A stretch of DNA of 64,000 nucleotides from NCBI RefSeq assembly GCF_002797895.1, contig NZ_PGES01000001.1:372001-436000 (forward strand), read 5' to 3'. The notes under the pieces are model-generated. The model was not told the origin of the DNA. It was given only the letters and a program-made list of their open reading frames with translations, and searched no databases. The first letter of the stretch is position 1. Each line of letters begins with the position of its first letter. Shown one piece after another: positions 53,410 through 58,471 of this stretch. The translations under genes were made by a program, and so were the position numbers. The stretch comes from Janthinobacterium sp. 67 (GTDB taxonomy: Bacteria; Pseudomonadota; Gammaproteobacteria; Burkholderiales; Burkholderiaceae_D).

Positions 53410-54918
53410 GTGCTACTGAATGTTGGCGATGTTTACAGTGTGTTTTCGTCCGAGCTGCAGCAGTACGTGGCTTGCCAGATCACCCGCATCAAGGACGTTT
53501 CATCGTCCAGGCCGGTAGCTGCCGTGCTGGAGCTGGACTGGACCGGTGACGCTTTGCCTGATGCGGCGGCCGTGCAAGCCATGCGGCCGCTGCTGTGCGA
53601 CTATTTCTTCTGGAATAACCGCCACGACCACTGCTATGCCACGGCAAACGTGCCGCCTGGCCATACCCTCGTGGGCAATATCGCGCCTTTGGTCGATGTG
53701 GAAGTCAACAGCTACCGCAGCGGCTGGAACGTGGGCGACAGCGTGCTGCGCCAGCGCAACTGGGAGCGCATCGACCCGTTGCGGCGCCAGCAATTCAAGG
53801 CCGCGTCGGACGAGCGTGAAGTAACCGTCGGCGGTCAGGTTTTCCGGCAGGACACGACGAAAATCAATGACAGCGTCTTGCAGGCGCTGGGCGACATATC
53901 CGAGTTGGAACAACTGCCTTGCCTGATGTCCATCGAGACCAGCAATGGCACGCAGGCCCTGATGGAGTTTATCCAGGGCAATCCCTTCATCAATGAGCTG
54001 CACTGGCAATCATCGACGGTGCATGCGCTCGATTTCAGCGCCAGTGGCTTGAACCGGCTGATCCTGCAGCCCGATGGCGTTACCAGCCTGGTCTTGAACG
54101 AAGGCTTGAGCCTGCTCGCGCTGCGCGGCGCGTCATCGCCGGCGCTGCGCATCGACGACGGCGCCGATGGCCGCCATCTGACACTGCAGTGCACGCAGAC
54201 GCTGCCGCCGTTCCACGGTCTCGGCCAACTGGGCGGCCTGTCGCTGGTCAGCATGAAAGAGGTCGACCTGGCGCAAGTGGCGCGGCGCTTTCCCTATCTG
54301 ACGGCCTTGCGCATCTGGGGCAAGCCGGGGCTGGCGTCGCAGATGGCCAGCCTGGCGCAACTGAGCCAGCTGCGGATGTTCACCGCCTATGACCTGTTCG
54401 GTTACACGGCGGAGGAGTTTCCATCGGCCACGCAATTGCCGCAGCTGTCGGCCTTGTGGCTGACCAGCTTGCCCGCCGATGTGGCCAAGGCCATCAAGAC
54501 CGGCTACAAGAGGGCGGCGGCGCTGGGACTGGACTTGTCGGTGACCAAGGCGCGCAAGCCGGAATGGCTGGCGGACAACCTGCTCAACCCGTTCCGCGAC
54601 TGGGATGGCCGCGAACATATTTCCCCCGCGTATGCGAAAAAGGCGGCGCTGGCCTACAAGAACATGCTGGCCGTGACGCGCGGCATTGATGCCGCCATGG
54701 ACGCAACGGCGGCCGCCGACGCGCTGGAGGCGATGGTCGCCGCCTATGTCGATGCATTCAACAAGATCGAGCGGCGCGCGAGCATCATCGAGACGGTCGA
54801 GCGCGAGGAAATCTACTCGGTGCTGGCGGAACTGCTGGCGCAGCTGGCCGGGCAGGGGACGGTGCTGGTCGATGAGGCGGCCTTGCTGGACCTGTTCGAT
54901 CGCTTGCGGGAATTCTAA
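53410..54918 (+). CDS. Large leucine-repeat-like hypothetical protein
   Basis: A 502-residue soluble protein. The start is GTG 53410, chosen because AAAGGAAG lies just upstream; the longer frame from TTG 53362 has none. The middle part (~190-370) has irregular leucine-rich repeats (LHWQSSTVHALDFSASGLNR, LRGASSPALRIDDG, FPYLTALRIWGKPGLASQ, LPQLSALWLTSLP). The C-terminal ~120 residues are helical with AYAKKAALAYKNMLAVTRGI and FNKIERRASIIETVEREEIY, blocks I associate with proteins annotated as gliding-motility-like in diverse bacteria. No enzymatic motif is seen. It sits alone between DUF3422 and the beta-lactamase locus. Confidence 0.65.
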   Translation: MLLNVGDVYSVFSSELQQYVACQITRIKDVSSSRPVAAVLELDWTGDALPDAAAVQAMRPLLCDYFFWNNRHDHCYATANVPPGHTLVGNIAPLVDVEVNSYRSGWNVGDSVLRQRNWERIDPLRRQQFKAASDEREVTVGGQVFRQDTTKINDSVLQALGDISELEQLPCLMSIETSNGTQALMEFIQGNPFINELHWQSSTVHALDFSASGLNRLILQPDGVTSLVLNEGLSLLALRGASSPALRIDDGADGRHLTLQCTQTLPPFHGLGQLGGLSLVSMKEVDLAQVARRFPYLTALRIWGKPGLASQMASLAQLSQLRMFTAYDLFGYTAEEFPSATQLPQLSALWLTSLPADVAKAIKTGYKRAAALGLDLSVTKARKPEWLADNLLNPFRDWDGREHISPAYAKKAALAYKNMLAVTRGIDAAMDATAAADALEAMVAAYVDAFNKIERRASIIETVEREEIYSVLAELLAQLAGQGTVLVDEAALLDLFDRLREF

Positions 54919-54943
54919 TCTCGTTGCCAATCCAGAAAAAAAG

Positions 54944-54975
54944 TTCTAGACATAGAGTTCTAGAATCGGTATTCT
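54944..54975 (+). promoter_or_regulatory. BlaI-type operator and promoter of the bla locus
   Basis: Two copies of TTCTAGA (54944-54950 and 54958-54964), 14 bases apart; TTCTAGA is itself nearly palindromic. TAGACA (54947-54952), 17 bases and TATTCT (54970-54975) make a promoter that overlaps both copies, so a bound repressor would block it. The -10 ends six bases before the blaI ATG and no ribosome binding site is present. Confidence 0.7.
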
Positions 54976-54981
54976 GGCGGC

Positions 54982-55374
54982 ATGTTAAAAAATACCTCCA
55001 CTCCCCATCCCACGGCCGCCGAACTGGACCTGCTGCGCATCCTGTGGCAGCGCGGTCCGTCCGACGCGCGCGCCGTGTACGAGGCCCTGGCCGCCGAGCG
55101 TGCCGACGCCAGTTACGCCACCGTGCTGCGTCAGTTGCAGCTGATGCATGGCAAGGGCTTGCTGAGCCGCGACGAAAGCCAGCGTCCCCAGCTGTATGCG
55201 GCCGTCGAAGCGCAGGAAAAGTTGCAGACCAGCTTGCTCAAGGACTTGATCGGCAAGGTGTTTTCCGGTTCCGGCAAGGCGCTCGTGCTGACGGCGCTGC
55301 GCGAGCACGTGAGCGACGCGGAGCGCCTGGAAATTGAAAAAATCCTGCGCAGCAAGGATGGCAAGGCGCCATGA
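54982..55374 (+). CDS. blaI: BlaI/MecI/CopY-family repressor
   Basis: A 130-residue repressor with an N-terminal winged helix (AAELDLLRILWQRGPSDARA, then ADASYATVLRQLQLMHGKGL, RDESQRPQLY) and a helical dimer tail (LKDLIGKVFSGSGKALVLTA). In known systems BlaI holds the lactamase operon silent and is cut when the BlaR1 sensor binds a beta-lactam. It overlaps the M56 sensor gene by 4 bases and has repeated TTCTAGA sites at its promoter. It may be translated from a leaderless message. Confidence 0.92.
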   Translation: MLKNTSTPHPTAAELDLLRILWQRGPSDARAVYEALAAERADASYATVLRQLQLMHGKGLLSRDESQRPQLYAAVEAQEKLQTSLLKDLIGKVFSGSGKALVLTALREHVSDAERLEIEKILRSKDGKAP

Positions 55375-57134
55375 ACCTGGACATCAGCTTGGGCAAAGAG
55401 TTGGGCAACCTTGTCCCGGCGCTGGGCTGGGTCCTGCTGTATTTTGTCTGGCAGGGCGTGATCGTCGGCGCCGTGTCCGCTGTCCTGCTGTGGCTGCTGC
55501 GCCATGCCAGCGCCCGCTGGCGCTATGCCGTCTGCGCGCTGGCGCTGCTGCTGTGCCTGTGTATTCCCTCGGCCCACCTGCTGTCTCTGCTGTCGGGCAT
55601 TTCGCCGGCCCAGCTGCCCTTGGCCGCGCCGCCCGCCTGGCGCGCCGCGCTGCAAGCGTGGATGCCGGCCCTGGTGCTGGCCTGGGGCGCCGGCGTTGGC
55701 TTGATGAGCTTGCGCCTGTGCCTGGGCCTTGCCTGGGTCGGCAAGCTGCGCCGCCAGGCGGTGGCCGCCCCGGCCATCTGGCAGGCGCGCCTCGATGCGC
55801 TGGCGCGGCGCATGGGCCTGCGCGGCAGCCAGCAAGTGCCGCTGAAGCTGCATGCGGGCCTGGCCAGCCCCGTCACGGTGGGCTTCTGGCGCCCCGTCAT
55901 CCTTCTGCCGGCCGCCTTGCTGAGCGGCATGCCCGTCGCCTTGCTCGAAGCGCTGCTGGCGCATGAGCTGGCCCACGTGCGGCGCTGGGATTACCTGGTC
56001 AATCTGTTGCAAAGCGTGGCCGAGGCGCTGCTGTTCTTTCACCCCGTCGTCTGGTGGCTGTCGGCGCGCATGCGGACCGAGCGCGAACAGGTGGCCGATG
56101 CCCTGGCCGCGCAAGCGCTGCAAGACCCGCAGCAACTGGCCACGGCGCTGCACGCCTTGTCCCTGCAGACGGCCGCGCCAAACCATTCCGGCTTGCTGAT
56201 GTCGGCACGGGGCGGGGCCTTGCTCGCACGCATAGAACGCTTGATGGCGCCCGGCCCTGACACCGGCGGCTGGAAGATGGCCGTGCCCGCCTTGCTGCTG
56301 GCCTGCGCCACCTTGCTGCTGCAGATGCAGGGCAAGCCTGAAGTCAATGGGGCGACCCTGGCCGAGGCCGCCGCCGGCATGCTGGACTTGCCCGTCAGCG
56401 CGAAACACATGCTGGTGTTCGATGACGCCAGCGGCAAGGTGCTGATGGCGAAAGATGCGGACGCCGTCGTGCCCATCGCCTCGATCACCAAGCTGATGAC
56501 GGCCATGGTGGTGCTCGACGCGGGGCAGGATCATGACGAGCAGGTGCGCATCGTGCGCGCCGACGGCGAGGCGTCCTTGCAGCGCCACAGCCTGCTGGCC
56601 GATGGCGTGGCCGTGTCGCGCGGCGCGCTGTTGCAACTGGCGCTGCTGCCGTCCGAAAACCGCGCCGCCGCCGCGCTGGCGCGCACCTATCCGGGCGGCC
56701 GCGGGGCTTTTAATAACGCCTTGCAAGCGAAAATCCGCAGCCTGGGCTTGCGCCGCACCAGCCTGACGGACCCTGTCGGCAGTTCGCCGGCCAATACCTC
56801 CACGGCCAGCGAGGTGGCGAAGATCGTCGCGGCAGCCGCGCGCTATCCGGACATCGCGCGCATCACCAGCCACCCGCAAGCGAGCGTGGCCGTCAATGGC
56901 AAATGGCGTACCTTGCACAACACCAACCCGCTGGTGGGCAGCAAGGGCTGGGACATTGTGCTGTCGAAGACGGGCAGCAGCCACGAGGCGGGCAGCTGCC
57001 TGACCATGCGCATGCGCAGCGGCGGCAAGCACGTCACCGTGGTACTGCTGGACGCCGACGGCGCGCAGCGGCGCTCGCTCGACGCCGGACACATCCGCGA
57101 CACCCTGGCCGACAGGACCGGCCGCATGTATTGA
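55371..57134 (+). CDS. BlaR1-like M56 metalloprotease fused to a PBP7-type sensor domain
   Basis: A 587-residue membrane sensor protease. Three N-terminal spans and the M56 protease loop carry the zinc site HELAH (residues 198-202) followed by RRWDYLVNLLQ; a further span (MAVPALLLACATLLLQM, ~302-318) places the rest in the periplasm. The C-terminal part (~335-587) is not the class-D-lactamase-like sensor of staphylococcal BlaR1 but a PBP7/PbpG-like D-Ala-D-Ala endopeptidase fold: SITK (Ser371, Lys374), SEN (428-430) and KTG (533-535), with SSENRAAAALARTYPGG like PBP7. All three penicillin-binding motifs are intact, so it could be acylated by beta-lactams. Coupled to blaI; the lactamase gene follows. 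Confidence 0.88.
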   Translation: MNLDISLGKELGNLVPALGWVLLYFVWQGVIVGAVSAVLLWLLRHASARWRYAVCALALLLCLCIPSAHLLSLLSGISPAQLPLAAPPAWRAALQAWMPALVLAWGAGVGLMSLRLCLGLAWVGKLRRQAVAAPAIWQARLDALARRMGLRGSQQVPLKLHAGLASPVTVGFWRPVILLPAALLSGMPVALLEALLAHELAHVRRWDYLVNLLQSVAEALLFFHPVVWWLSARMRTEREQVADALAAQALQDPQQLATALHALSLQTAAPNHSGLLMSARGGALLARIERLMAPGPDTGGWKMAVPALLLACATLLLQMQGKPEVNGATLAEAAAGMLDLPVSAKHMLVFDDASGKVLMAKDADAVVPIASITKLMTAMVVLDAGQDHDEQVRIVRADGEASLQRHSLLADGVAVSRGALLQLALLPSENRAAAALARTYPGGRGAFNNALQAKIRSLGLRRTSLTDPVGSSPANTSTASEVAKIVAAAARYPDIARITSHPQASVAVNGKWRTLHNTNPLVGSKGWDIVLSKTGSSHEAGSCLTMRMRSGGKHVTVVLLDADGAQRRSLDAGHIRDTLADRTGRMY

Positions 57135-57143
57135 TACCCCCCC

Positions 57144-57174
57144 GGGCGCGCCAGTGCGGGCGCCCTTCTTTTTT
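57144..57174 (+). terminator. Terminator between the sensor and lactamase genes
   Basis: GGGCGC (57144-57149) pairs with GCGCCC (57160-57165), followed by TTCTTTTTT. It ends 17 bases before the lactamase start, leaving no room for a separate promoter behind it, so the lactamase would depend on read-through or on a promoter inside the sensor gene. Confidence 0.75.
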
Positions 57175-57191
57175 ACACTCTGGAGATGAAG

Positions 57192-58142
57192 ATGACACTA
57201 TTGGCGAAGTTGATGCTGGCTACGGTTGCGACCATGGCGGCTGCTACGGTGCAGGCGAAGACGCCGGCGACCGTGCAGGATAAACCGGTAAATTGCGACA
57301 ATTGCAAGGAATGGAACGCGCCCGTCAAGCCGTTCAATGTCTTTGGCAATACCTGGTATGTGGGCACGGCCGGCCTGTCCGCAGTGCTGGTGACGAGTCC
57401 GCAAGGCCATATCCTGCTCGACGGCGCGCTGCCCCAATCGGCGCCCCTGATCATCGCAAATATCAAGGCGCTGGGCTTTCGTATCGAGGACGTAAAATAC
57501 ATCCTCAATTCGCACGCCCATTGGGACCATGCGGGCGGCATCGCCGCGCTGCAACGGGCGAGCGGCGCCACCGTGATGGCCAGCGCGGCGGCCGCTCCCG
57601 TGCTGCAAAGCGGCACCAACGGCAAGGACGATCCGCAGTACCAGGCCGATCCCGTCGTGCACGTCGCCAAGGTAAGCAAGGTCAGCCTGGTAGGCGAGGG
57701 CGATACCGTCAAGGTGGGACCGTTGACCCTGACGGCCCACATGACGCCGGGCCACACTCCCGGCGGCACGACGTGGACGTGGACCTCGTGCGAAGGCCAG
57801 CGCTGCCTGGACGTCGTGTATGCGGACAGCCTGAACCCGTATTCGAGCGGCGATTTCACTTACACGGGCAAAGGCGGCACGCCCGATATTTCGGCCTCGT
57901 TCGAAGCGAGCATCGCCAAGGTGGCTACCTTGCCATGCGACATCATCATCCCCGTGCATCCGGGCACGACGGACGTGCTGGGCAAGGCCGCCAGGCGCAG
58001 CGGTCAAGACAATCCCCTGATCGACGCCAACGCCTGCCGCGCCTATGCGGCCGAAGCGGGCGGCTTGCTGGCCAAGCGCCTGGCGAAAGAGCGGGGCGTG
58101 GCCTTGCCTGCCGAAGCGAAGGGCGCGGCGCACGCGCATTAA
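57192..58142 (+). CDS. Subclass B3 metallo-beta-lactamase, THIN-B-like
   Basis: A zinc enzyme that opens the ring of penicillins, cephalosporins and carbapenems in the periplasm. From ATG 57192 (GGAG six bases upstream; ATG 57186 sits on that site) the product is 316 residues with a signal peptide (KLMLATVATMAAATVQA). The first zinc site is HAHWDH and the loop GHTPGGTTWTWTSCEGQRC holds the next histidine, with a C-terminal HPG for the third, the B3 pattern. From memory it is close to THIN-B of Janthinobacterium lividum. It follows blaI and the PBP7-type sensor, so it is probably induced by beta-lactams. Confidence 0.93.
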   Translation: MTLLAKLMLATVATMAAATVQAKTPATVQDKPVNCDNCKEWNAPVKPFNVFGNTWYVGTAGLSAVLVTSPQGHILLDGALPQSAPLIIANIKALGFRIEDVKYILNSHAHWDHAGGIAALQRASGATVMASAAAAPVLQSGTNGKDDPQYQADPVVHVAKVSKVSLVGEGDTVKVGPLTLTAHMTPGHTPGGTTWTWTSCEGQRCLDVVYADSLNPYSSGDFTYTGKGGTPDISASFEASIAKVATLPCDIIIPVHPGTTDVLGKAARRSGQDNPLIDANACRAYAAEAGGLLAKRLAKERGVALPAEAKGAAHAH

Positions 58143-58147
58143 GCTTT

Positions 58148-58471
58148 TTACTCCGCCGCCTGCCGCTGTTTTTGCAGGCGTTTCAGAAACACCGTCATTT
58201 CCTTGCCGGCTTGCAGGTCGCCTTGCTGCCGGGCCACCGTCACGCCGGTGGCCCAGGCGGCCTGCGCTTCATCCAGCCGGCCCAGCTGGTGCAAGGCCTT
58301 GCCCAGCAGTTTCCAGGCGGCGGAATAGCCGGGCTGCTGCACCGTGGATTGCGCCAGGTGCAGGGCAGCTTGCTCGGCGTCATGATCTTTCAGACAGGCA
58401 TCACCCAGGCCAAAGCGCAGCAGCGCGCTGTCGCGCCCCTGCGCCAGCAGGTTTTCCAGCTTTTCACGCAT
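58148..58471 (-). CDS. TPR-repeat protein
   Basis: A 107-residue protein of about three tetratricopeptide-like repeats (LLRFGLGDACLKDHDAEQAA, AAWKLLGKALHQLGRLDEAQ, AAWATGVTVARQQGDLQAGK). The start ATG 58471 has GGAG seven bases upstream; in-frame ATGs further upstream lie inside a perfect inverted repeat. TPR proteins serve as binding scaffolds; no partner is evident. It converges with the lactamase gene (5 bases between stops). Confidence 0.8.
   Translation of the reverse strand: MREKLENLLAQGRDSALLRFGLGDACLKDHDAEQAALHLAQSTVQQPGYSAAWKLLGKALHQLGRLDEAQAAWATGVTVARQQGDLQAGKEMTVFLKRLQKQRQAAE

What the first reader, a model, noticed from the sequence alone, without database searches (positions are those of the whole stretch)
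54944..58142. BlaI / M56-PBP7 fusion / B3 lactamase: a beta-lactam sensor built from an endopeptidase
The sensor at 55371 keeps the BlaR1 membrane protease (HELAH at 198-202), but its periplasmic half matches PBP7/PbpG (SITK 371, SEN 428, KTG 533) instead of the class-D-lactamase-like sensor of BlaR1/MecR1. The gene is coupled to blaI and precedes a THIN-B-like B3 metallo-beta-lactamase. If real, the sensor is a penicillin-binding protein of the S11 family that could report either beta-lactam acylation or peptidoglycan fragments. Chromosomal metallo-lactamases are usually thought to be constitutive or AmpR-controlled, so this would be a distinct inducible circuit. I know of no description of it, but could not search.
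Basis: partly seen in the sequence, partly recalled or inferred. Interest (0 to 1): 0.8.

Follow-up and report, generated by a model that had tools for sequence, protein, structure and literature searches.

The report
Endopeptidase-type sensor beside a beta-lactamase
In Janthinobacterium a gene pair resembling the staphylococcal penicillin-sensing switch, but with a cell-wall endopeptidase as its sensor half, sits directly in front of a metallo-beta-lactamase gene; in related bacteria the same pair, under the same DNA control site, is wired to other genes, among them two other, unrelated kinds of beta-lactamase.

Summary
Confirmed: blaI (54982-55374), a 587-aa membrane protein (55371-57134) joining a BlaR1-type M56 metalloprotease to an S11 domain closest to PBP7-type DD-endopeptidases, then a subclass B3 lactamase (to 58142). 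A class-D-like sensor half is not supported. Catalytic residues of both halves are invariant in 54 aligned sequences. New: (1) an operator, GTTCTAGACAnnnnGTTCTAGAAC, over the blaI promoter, once in this genome; (2) the same operator and gene pair in other Burkholderiales with changing downstream genes. In 63 distinct loci, 30 have a lactamase behind the sensor: B3 in 20 of 20 Janthinobacterium loci, class A in two Herbaspirillum, class C in eight others; the rest have a D-amino-acid-oxidase-like gene, TonB receptor, esterase or none of these; (3) in one genome a second perfect operator precedes a class C lactamase; (4) four sensorless Janthinobacterium genomes lack operator and THIN-type gene. 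Three lactamase classes tied to one repressor make a beta-lactam signal the best reading (0.77). A peptidoglycan signal stays open, because 33 loci show no lactamase. Caveats: no expression data; a terminator-like hairpin precedes the lactamase here; most literature searches failed. A new variant of the BlaR1/BlaI kind, not BlaR1 in the strict sense.

The parts
54943..54966 (+). BlaI-type operator GTTCTAGACA-4-GTTCTAGAAT (19 of 20 to the consensus), overlapping the blaI promoter; a third, degenerate half-site just upstream (about 54932-54938)
   Evidence: one copy in the genome at up to 3 mismatches, the backwards control pattern also giving one chance match
54947..54975 (+). sigma-70-type promoter of the operon: TAGACA, 17, TATTCT
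   Evidence: at the same spacing 60 of 64 sequences have a -10 with 4 or more of 6 and 59 of 64 such a -35
54982..55374 (+). blaI: Penicillinase_R (BlaI/MecI) repressor, 130 aa
55371..57134 (+). sensor: N-terminal M56 membrane metalloprotease (HELAH 198-202, E239) and C-terminal PBP7-like S11 domain (S371/K374, S428/N430, K533-T534-G535), 587 aa
57144..57174 (+). terminator-like hairpin and T-run between sensor and bla (main Janthinobacterium clade; L021, L023 and L050 have only 9-17 bases here)
57186..58142 (+). subclass B3 metallo-beta-lactamase of THIN type (start probably 57192)

Best explanation
A BlaR1/BlaI-like switch with a different sensor. Inferred mechanism: BlaI dimers sit on the TCTAGA half-sites over the -35/-10 region of the blaI promoter and hold the operon blaI-sensor-bla low. 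The sensor lies in the inner membrane with its S11 domain in the periplasm. A beta-lactam acylates Ser371 of that domain; the change passes to the M56 metalloprotease (HELAH, E239), which removes BlaI by proteolysis, so the operon including the B3 lactamase is induced; hydrolysis of the drug resets the system. Shown here by sequence: genes, domains, intact catalytic residues, conserved operator-promoter, co-occurrence with lactamases. Inferred: acylation, proteolysis of BlaI, induction, read-through into bla. In related genera the same cassette drives other gene arrays, several of which also end in a lactamase.
For: Domains and fold. Catalytic residues of both halves invariant in 54 sequences, the window included. 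Operator 14-20 of 20 positions in all 66 sequences compared against 9-13 in one shuffle of each. One operator in the own genome. Of 63 distinct loci 30 have a lactamase behind the sensor on the same strand: B3 20 (all loci titled Janthinobacterium), class A 2 (Herbaspirillum; NF033103 274 and 285 bits, cut-off 200), class C 8 (three Paucibacter behind an oxidase-like gene, four of 13 genus-g7 genomes behind a TonB receptor, one directly behind the sensor; NF033085 497-529 bits in seven, cut-off 415, and 216 bits for the eighth, which is cut by a contig end). In G337 a second, perfect operator-promoter stands directly before a class C lactamase (520 bits). Four sensorless Janthinobacterium genomes have no THIN ortholog (best 47-51% against 68-95% in four sensor-bearing ones) and no operator at up to 2 mismatches. 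In L021, L023 and L050 bla follows the sensor after 9-17 bases. Members of the S11 fold are solved as beta-lactam complexes (titles). Precedent: M56/class-D BlaR1-type sensors beside lactamases in the same family (PMC5967600, passages).
Against: 33 of 63 distinct loci show no lactamase of classes A, B3 or C behind the sensor (class D and others not searched): 12 only the oxidase-like gene, 12 only a TonB receptor, 3 an esterase, 6 none of these, one of them cut within the sensor. A hairpin with T-run before bla in the window's clade could cut expression, though its folding energy is barely better than shuffled (z -0.5 to -2.7 in 8 main-clade sequences). On the sensor tree presence of a lactamase needs 6 changes and the four states (A, B3, C, none) 7, so gains and losses are not resolved. 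No expression or binding data. G337 is an 87% complete, 7% contaminated assembly, so its class C contig could be foreign, although its two operators are nearly identical.
Confidence: 0.77

Rival explanations
1. The cassette reports peptidoglycan state, not the drug: the S11 domain is a live DD-endopeptidase whose occupancy by stem peptides (or released D-amino-acid peptides) gates the M56 protease; outputs are salvage or envelope genes, and lactamases are induced indirectly, by wall damage.
For: Non-lactamase genes are the nearest output in many loci: D-amino-acid-oxidase family 15 of 63 (best solved relatives D-aspartate and D-amino acid oxidases), TonB receptors 16 of 63, esterase 3 of 63. 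The own genome also has a BlaI-M56-M23 pair, M23 being another wall-peptidase family, followed by a TonB receptor. The S11 catalytic set is fully kept.
Against: Three lactamase classes behind the cassette, some of them at the end of the very oxidase and TonB arrays, and a class C gene behind a free-standing operator. A D-amino-acid oxidase or an esterase could also act on the D-aminoadipyl or acetoxy groups of natural cephalosporins (recalled chemistry, untested).
Confidence: 0.15
2. In the window's clade the switch controls itself, but bla is effectively uncoupled: the hairpin ends the blaI-sensor transcript and bla is expressed at a low constitutive level by read-through or an unrecognised promoter.
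For: Terminator-like hairpin and T-run between the genes; by eye an inverted repeat and T-run in all 16 sequences with a 48-55 base gap, the window among them; 8 of these were folded.
Against: No promoter-like site other than that of blaI in 54800-58300 on either strand (one consensus only); 11-17 bases between T-run and the possible bla starts; sensor and bla are present or absent together in the 8 genomes tested and adjacent in 20 of 20 loci.
Confidence: 0.06
3. The protein is an ordinary membrane-anchored endopeptidase with an inherited M56 anchor and no signalling role.
For: Databases name some members endopeptidase or carboxypeptidase.
Against: M56 catalytic residues invariant, a blaI gene upstream in the loci with both domains that were examined, and the conserved operator.
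Confidence: 0.02

Closest known systems
BlaR1/MecR1 with BlaI/MecI (staphylococci, Bacillus)
   Same: BlaI-type repressor gene next to a membrane M56 protease with a C-terminal periplasmic serine domain of the penicillin-recognising type; lactamase nearby. Catalytic layout HExxH ... FFHP turn ... ExxxD resembles that given for MecR1 (HELSH, FWFNP, EKVCD: PMC6925264, passages).
   Different: Sensor domain is S11 (PBP7-like), not the class-D-like domain; the lactamase here is a subclass B3 metallo-enzyme; Gram-negative host; TCTAGA-type operator; outputs vary between genera.
Class-D BlaR1-type sensors beside LRA-13-type bifunctional lactamases in Duganella, Massilia and Janthinobacterium sp. HH01 (PMC5967600, passages seen)
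   Same: Related bacteria, M56/BlaR1-type sensor genes next to lactamase genes.
   Different: Their sensor half is class D; ours is S11; the lactamase there is a class C-class D fusion.
PBP7/PbpG DD-endopeptidase (solved relatives 6muq, 6azi)
   Same: S11 fold, SxxK/SxN/KTG, 38-40% identity.
   Different: Ours is fused behind an M56 protease; the NCBIfam PBP7 model scores 199.9 bits against a cut-off of 294; the genome has a separate PBP7-like gene at C1:505009-505749.
THIN-B subclass B3 metallo-beta-lactamase of J. lividum
   Same: Best NCBIfam family hit, 609.5 bits.
   Different: Below that family's cut-off (700); described here with its regulator pair.

Membership tests
BlaR1/MecR1 sensor-transducer | N-terminal M56 gluzincin membrane protease with HExxH and downstream Glu | tested here: met
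   PF05569 81.4 bits, cut-off 31; H198 E199 H202 E239 invariant in 54 sequences
BlaR1/MecR1 sensor-transducer | C-terminal class-D-like transpeptidase sensor domain | tested here: not met
   Pfam gives S11 (8.8e-45) and no transpeptidase-family hit at E 0.01; the BlaR1 model matches only residues 101-254, 54 bits against a cut-off of 400; best fold matches are S11 enzymes
BlaR1/MecR1 sensor-transducer | cognate BlaI/MecI repressor encoded next to it, with an operator at the promoter | tested here: met
   PF03965 65.8 bits, cut-off 22.6; operator-like site. Binding itself not tested
BlaR1/MecR1 sensor-transducer | acylation by beta-lactams and proteolytic loss of the repressor | not testable with these tools
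   needs bench work
PBP7 (PbpG) DD-endopeptidase | S11 serine-peptidase motifs SxxK, SxN, KTG | tested here: met
   SITK 371, SEN 428, KTG 533; S371, K374, S428, N430, K533, T534, G535 invariant
PBP7 (PbpG) DD-endopeptidase | passes the curated PBP7 equivalog cut-off | tested here: not met
   NF008668 199.9 bits against 294
subclass B3 metallo-beta-lactamase | B3 model above cut-off and zinc motif HxHxDH | tested here: met
   NF033105 357.5 bits, cut-off 240; HAHWDH at 110 (motif recalled)
THIN family of B3 lactamases | NF000440 above cut-off | tested here: not met
   609.5 bits against 700

The most novel reading that the evidence does not exclude
The blaI + M56-S11 pair is a portable wall-status module: a DD-endopeptidase domain that keeps its catalytic set serves as receptor, reporting its own occupancy (by a beta-lactam or by stem peptides) to an M56 anti-repressor protease. 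Burkholderiales have wired it, through one operator-promoter unit, to three lactamase classes (A, B3, C), to enzymes that could attack D-amino-acid or ester side chains of natural beta-lactams or of peptidoglycan, and to TonB receptors, so that some arrays would be whole beta-lactam uptake-and-degradation or wall-salvage operons. M56 proteins with other wall-peptidase domains (M23 in the same genome) would be further receptors of the same kind.
Probability: 0.3. Interest if true: 0.8.

Novelty: new variant of a known kind. Interest (0 to 1): 0.64.

Why it matters
It would be an inducible, BlaI-controlled circuit for a chromosomal subclass B3 metallo-beta-lactamase, with a sensor that is itself a cell-wall endopeptidase. 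It makes two questions testable: whether M56 receptors can read a low-molecular-mass PBP of the S11 family, and whether such receptors see the drug or the wall. The recurrence of one operator-promoter and sensor unit before lactamases of classes A, B3 and C shows how lactamase genes of environmental bacteria come under a ready-made sensing module.

Tried and rejected
Class-D-like sensor half: rejected. Chance placing of lactamases: judged unlikely because different classes recur behind the same cassette; no probability was computed. First count of downstream genes had no class C query and stopped at 2.6 kb, so it missed eight class C genes; the recount replaces it, and I raised the best explanation from 0.70 to 0.77 and lowered its rivals for that reason. 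Wider regulon in the own genome: no second operator at up to 3 mismatches; the two further B3 genes of the genome (C1:293121, C1:4701961) are far from every BlaI and M56 match of the genome. Presence outside Burkholderiales: in 369 genomes drawn from the class only the own genome has a match over both domains at E 1e-95, at most 3 candidates a genome being scored; in 399 of the order 4 have such a match. A single origin of the S11 fusion was not settled: standalone PBP7 rows are not one side of the S11 tree (2 changes), with long branches. Hairpin: shape similar in 8 folded sequences, energy not clearly beyond shuffles. BlaR1 (8exs) was matched by sequence over the M56 part only; it is not among the 50 rows shown, which says nothing against it. 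Papers: one search found 32 papers and listed 20, none of whose titles describes this sensor; one search found 0 papers with both Pfam names; later searches failed, so absence from print is not shown. The 2001 paper on the J. lividum lactamase could not be opened, nor a BlaR1 structure paper.
Full report

CONTROL REGION. Over the promoter of blaI lies GTTCTAGACA-4-GTTCTAGAAT (54943-54966); the -35 (TAGACA) and -10 (TATTCT) hexamers are 17 bases apart. At up to 3 mismatches it occurs once in the 6.45-Mb genome; the same pattern read backwards also has one chance match. Upstream of blaI in 66 sequences (window and 65 loci, two of which repeat others) the best site matches 14-20 of 20 positions; one shuffle of each gives 9-13. 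In 60 of 64 a -10-like hexamer stands at the same spacing. The genome has two further BlaI-M56 pairs: M56 with a TonB-like C-terminus by eye (L081) and M56 with an M23 peptidase (L082, Pfam), the latter followed by a TonB receptor.

WHO ELSE HAS IT. In 294 genomes of the window's family, 39 have a match at E 1e-125: 23 of the 27 shown as own or same genus, 13 of genus g7, 2 of g6, 1 in g8 that covers only profile positions 4-416 at a contig end. In 399 genomes of the order 4 have a match over both domains. In 369 of the class only the own genome has it. So it is patchy and so far seen only in Burkholderiales. The catalytic residues (H198, E199, H202, E239; S371, K374; S428, N430; K533, T534, G535) are invariant in 54 aligned sensors.

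WHAT FOLLOWS THE SENSOR. A first count lacked a class C query. The recount looks at up to about 5 kb behind the sensor, same strand, six query proteins, E 1e-15. Of 63 distinct loci: B3 lactamase 20; oxidase-like gene alone 12; TonB receptor alone 12; TonB receptor then class C lactamase 4; oxidase-like gene then class C lactamase 3; esterase 3; class A lactamase 2; class C lactamase directly 1; none of the six 6. By group: 20 of 20 Janthinobacterium loci have B3; both Herbaspirillum loci class A; of 13 g7 loci 4 have TonB plus class C and 9 TonB alone; of 25 Roseateles/Pelomonas/Paucibacter-type loci 12 have the oxidase alone, 3 oxidase plus class C (all three titled Paucibacter), 1 class C, 3 esterase, 2 TonB, 4 none; L173 has TonB, L172 none, L043 ends within the sensor. 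Some contigs or fetched stretches end early (L033 650 bases, L036 1434, L173 2331 behind the sensor), and class D lactamases were not searched. Family calls: class A NF033103 274 and 285 bits, cut-off 200; class C NF033085 497-529 bits in seven, cut-off 415, and 216 bits for the fragment in L033; oxidase PF01266 and best solved relatives D-aspartate and D-amino acid oxidases; TonB receptors; esterase PF00756, solved relatives siderophore esterases. In L034 and L036 the oxidase gene begins 4 bases inside the sensor gene, which suggests one transcript.

ONE OPERATOR, THREE LACTAMASE CLASSES. In G337, whose sensor is followed by a TonB receptor, a second perfect operator with the same -35/17/-10 lies about 20 bases before the first possible start of a class C lactamase ORF (520 bits); the assembly is 87% complete and 7% contaminated. 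In G308 a second operator (2 mismatches) precedes an esterase 45% identical to the one behind the sensor in L026. In the other genomes scanned most sites at up to 2 mismatches are those at blaI; of the few others two (G613, G651) precede further BlaI-M56 pairs and the rest were not all examined. L024, L037 and L045 lie in genomes without a match at that threshold; their sites have a shorter spacing. On the tree of 61 sensors the B3 rows form one side of a branch (99) and the two class A rows another (100); lactamase present or absent needs 6 changes, class C alone 5, all four states 7, so whether a class C gene was ancestral and lost, or gained several times, is open.

JOINT ABSENCE. Four of 27 Janthinobacterium genomes have no sensor match at E 1e-125. 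Their best B3 relatives are 47-51% identical, in the range of the paralogs (43-51%) of sensor-bearing genomes; four sensor-bearing genomes have 68-95% relatives next to the sensor. The four also have no operator at up to 2 mismatches, only 3-mismatch matches at a rate like that of the control pattern.

THE WEAK POINT. In the main Janthinobacterium clade a hairpin with T-run lies between sensor and bla. In L021, L023 and L050 the gap is 9-17 bases; L023 and L050 were folded and show no stable structure. No other promoter-like site was found by one consensus scan. The likeliest reading is a partial terminator that sets the sensor-to-lactamase ratio; this is inference.

MECHANISM. By analogy with BlaR1/MecR1 (PMC6925264, passages): acylation of the periplasmic serine, passed to the M56 site, loss of BlaI, induction. 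Order of genes, intact sites and operator are shown; acylation, proteolysis and induction are inferred. The rival is a peptidoglycan-state sensor, favoured by oxidase and TonB outputs and by the M56-M23 sister pair. Recalled chemistry offers a bridge: D-amino acid oxidase and acetylesterase can act on cephalosporin C side groups; this was not tested. That some oxidase and TonB arrays end in a class C lactamase speaks for the drug.

KNOWN OR NEW. M56 sensors with class D halves beside lactamases are in print for related bacteria (PMC5967600, passages). Databases list the fusion as 'M56 family metallopeptidase' or 'D-alanyl-D-alanine endopeptidase'. I found no description of the S11 variant, but only two paper searches ran. 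I file it as a new variant of the BlaR1/BlaI kind that fails one defining feature of BlaR1 proper (the class-D-like sensor).

Noticed in passing
54970-54982: The -10 hexamer of blaI ends 6 bases before its ATG, so the blaI transcript may be leaderless in Janthinobacterium (spacing rule recalled).
   Followed up: no
L025 6725-7852: The oxidase-like gene behind the sensor looks circularly permuted: its residues 39-92 match the C-terminal part (320-373) of a D-amino acid oxidase chain and residues 100-320 match the N-terminal part of another.
   Followed up: partly
L082 4707-8785: The same genome has a BlaI / M56-M23 fusion pair followed by a TonB receptor, with a different dyad (GCGACAGCTGTCGC) upstream by eye: a second M56 protein with a wall-peptidase domain.
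   Followed up: partly
L103, L105, L189, L250-L252: Other M56 proteins carry a shared C-terminal region rich in 'LGKQM' repeats instead of a known sensor domain; L250-L252 have TCTAGA-type operators.
   Followed up: no
L160, L161, L163, L164, behind the TonB receptor: In these genus-g7 loci the TonB receptor is followed by an alpha/beta-hydrolase ORF that by eye resembles proline iminopeptidase.
   Followed up: no
L158, L159, L167, between sensor and TonB receptor: A short inverted repeat TTGCGCC...GGCGCAA is seen by eye between sensor and receptor genes.
   Followed up: no
G000 C1:293121 and C1:4701961: Two more subclass B3 lactamase genes above the NF033105 cut-off in the same genome, far from any BlaI or M56 gene.
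   Followed up: partly
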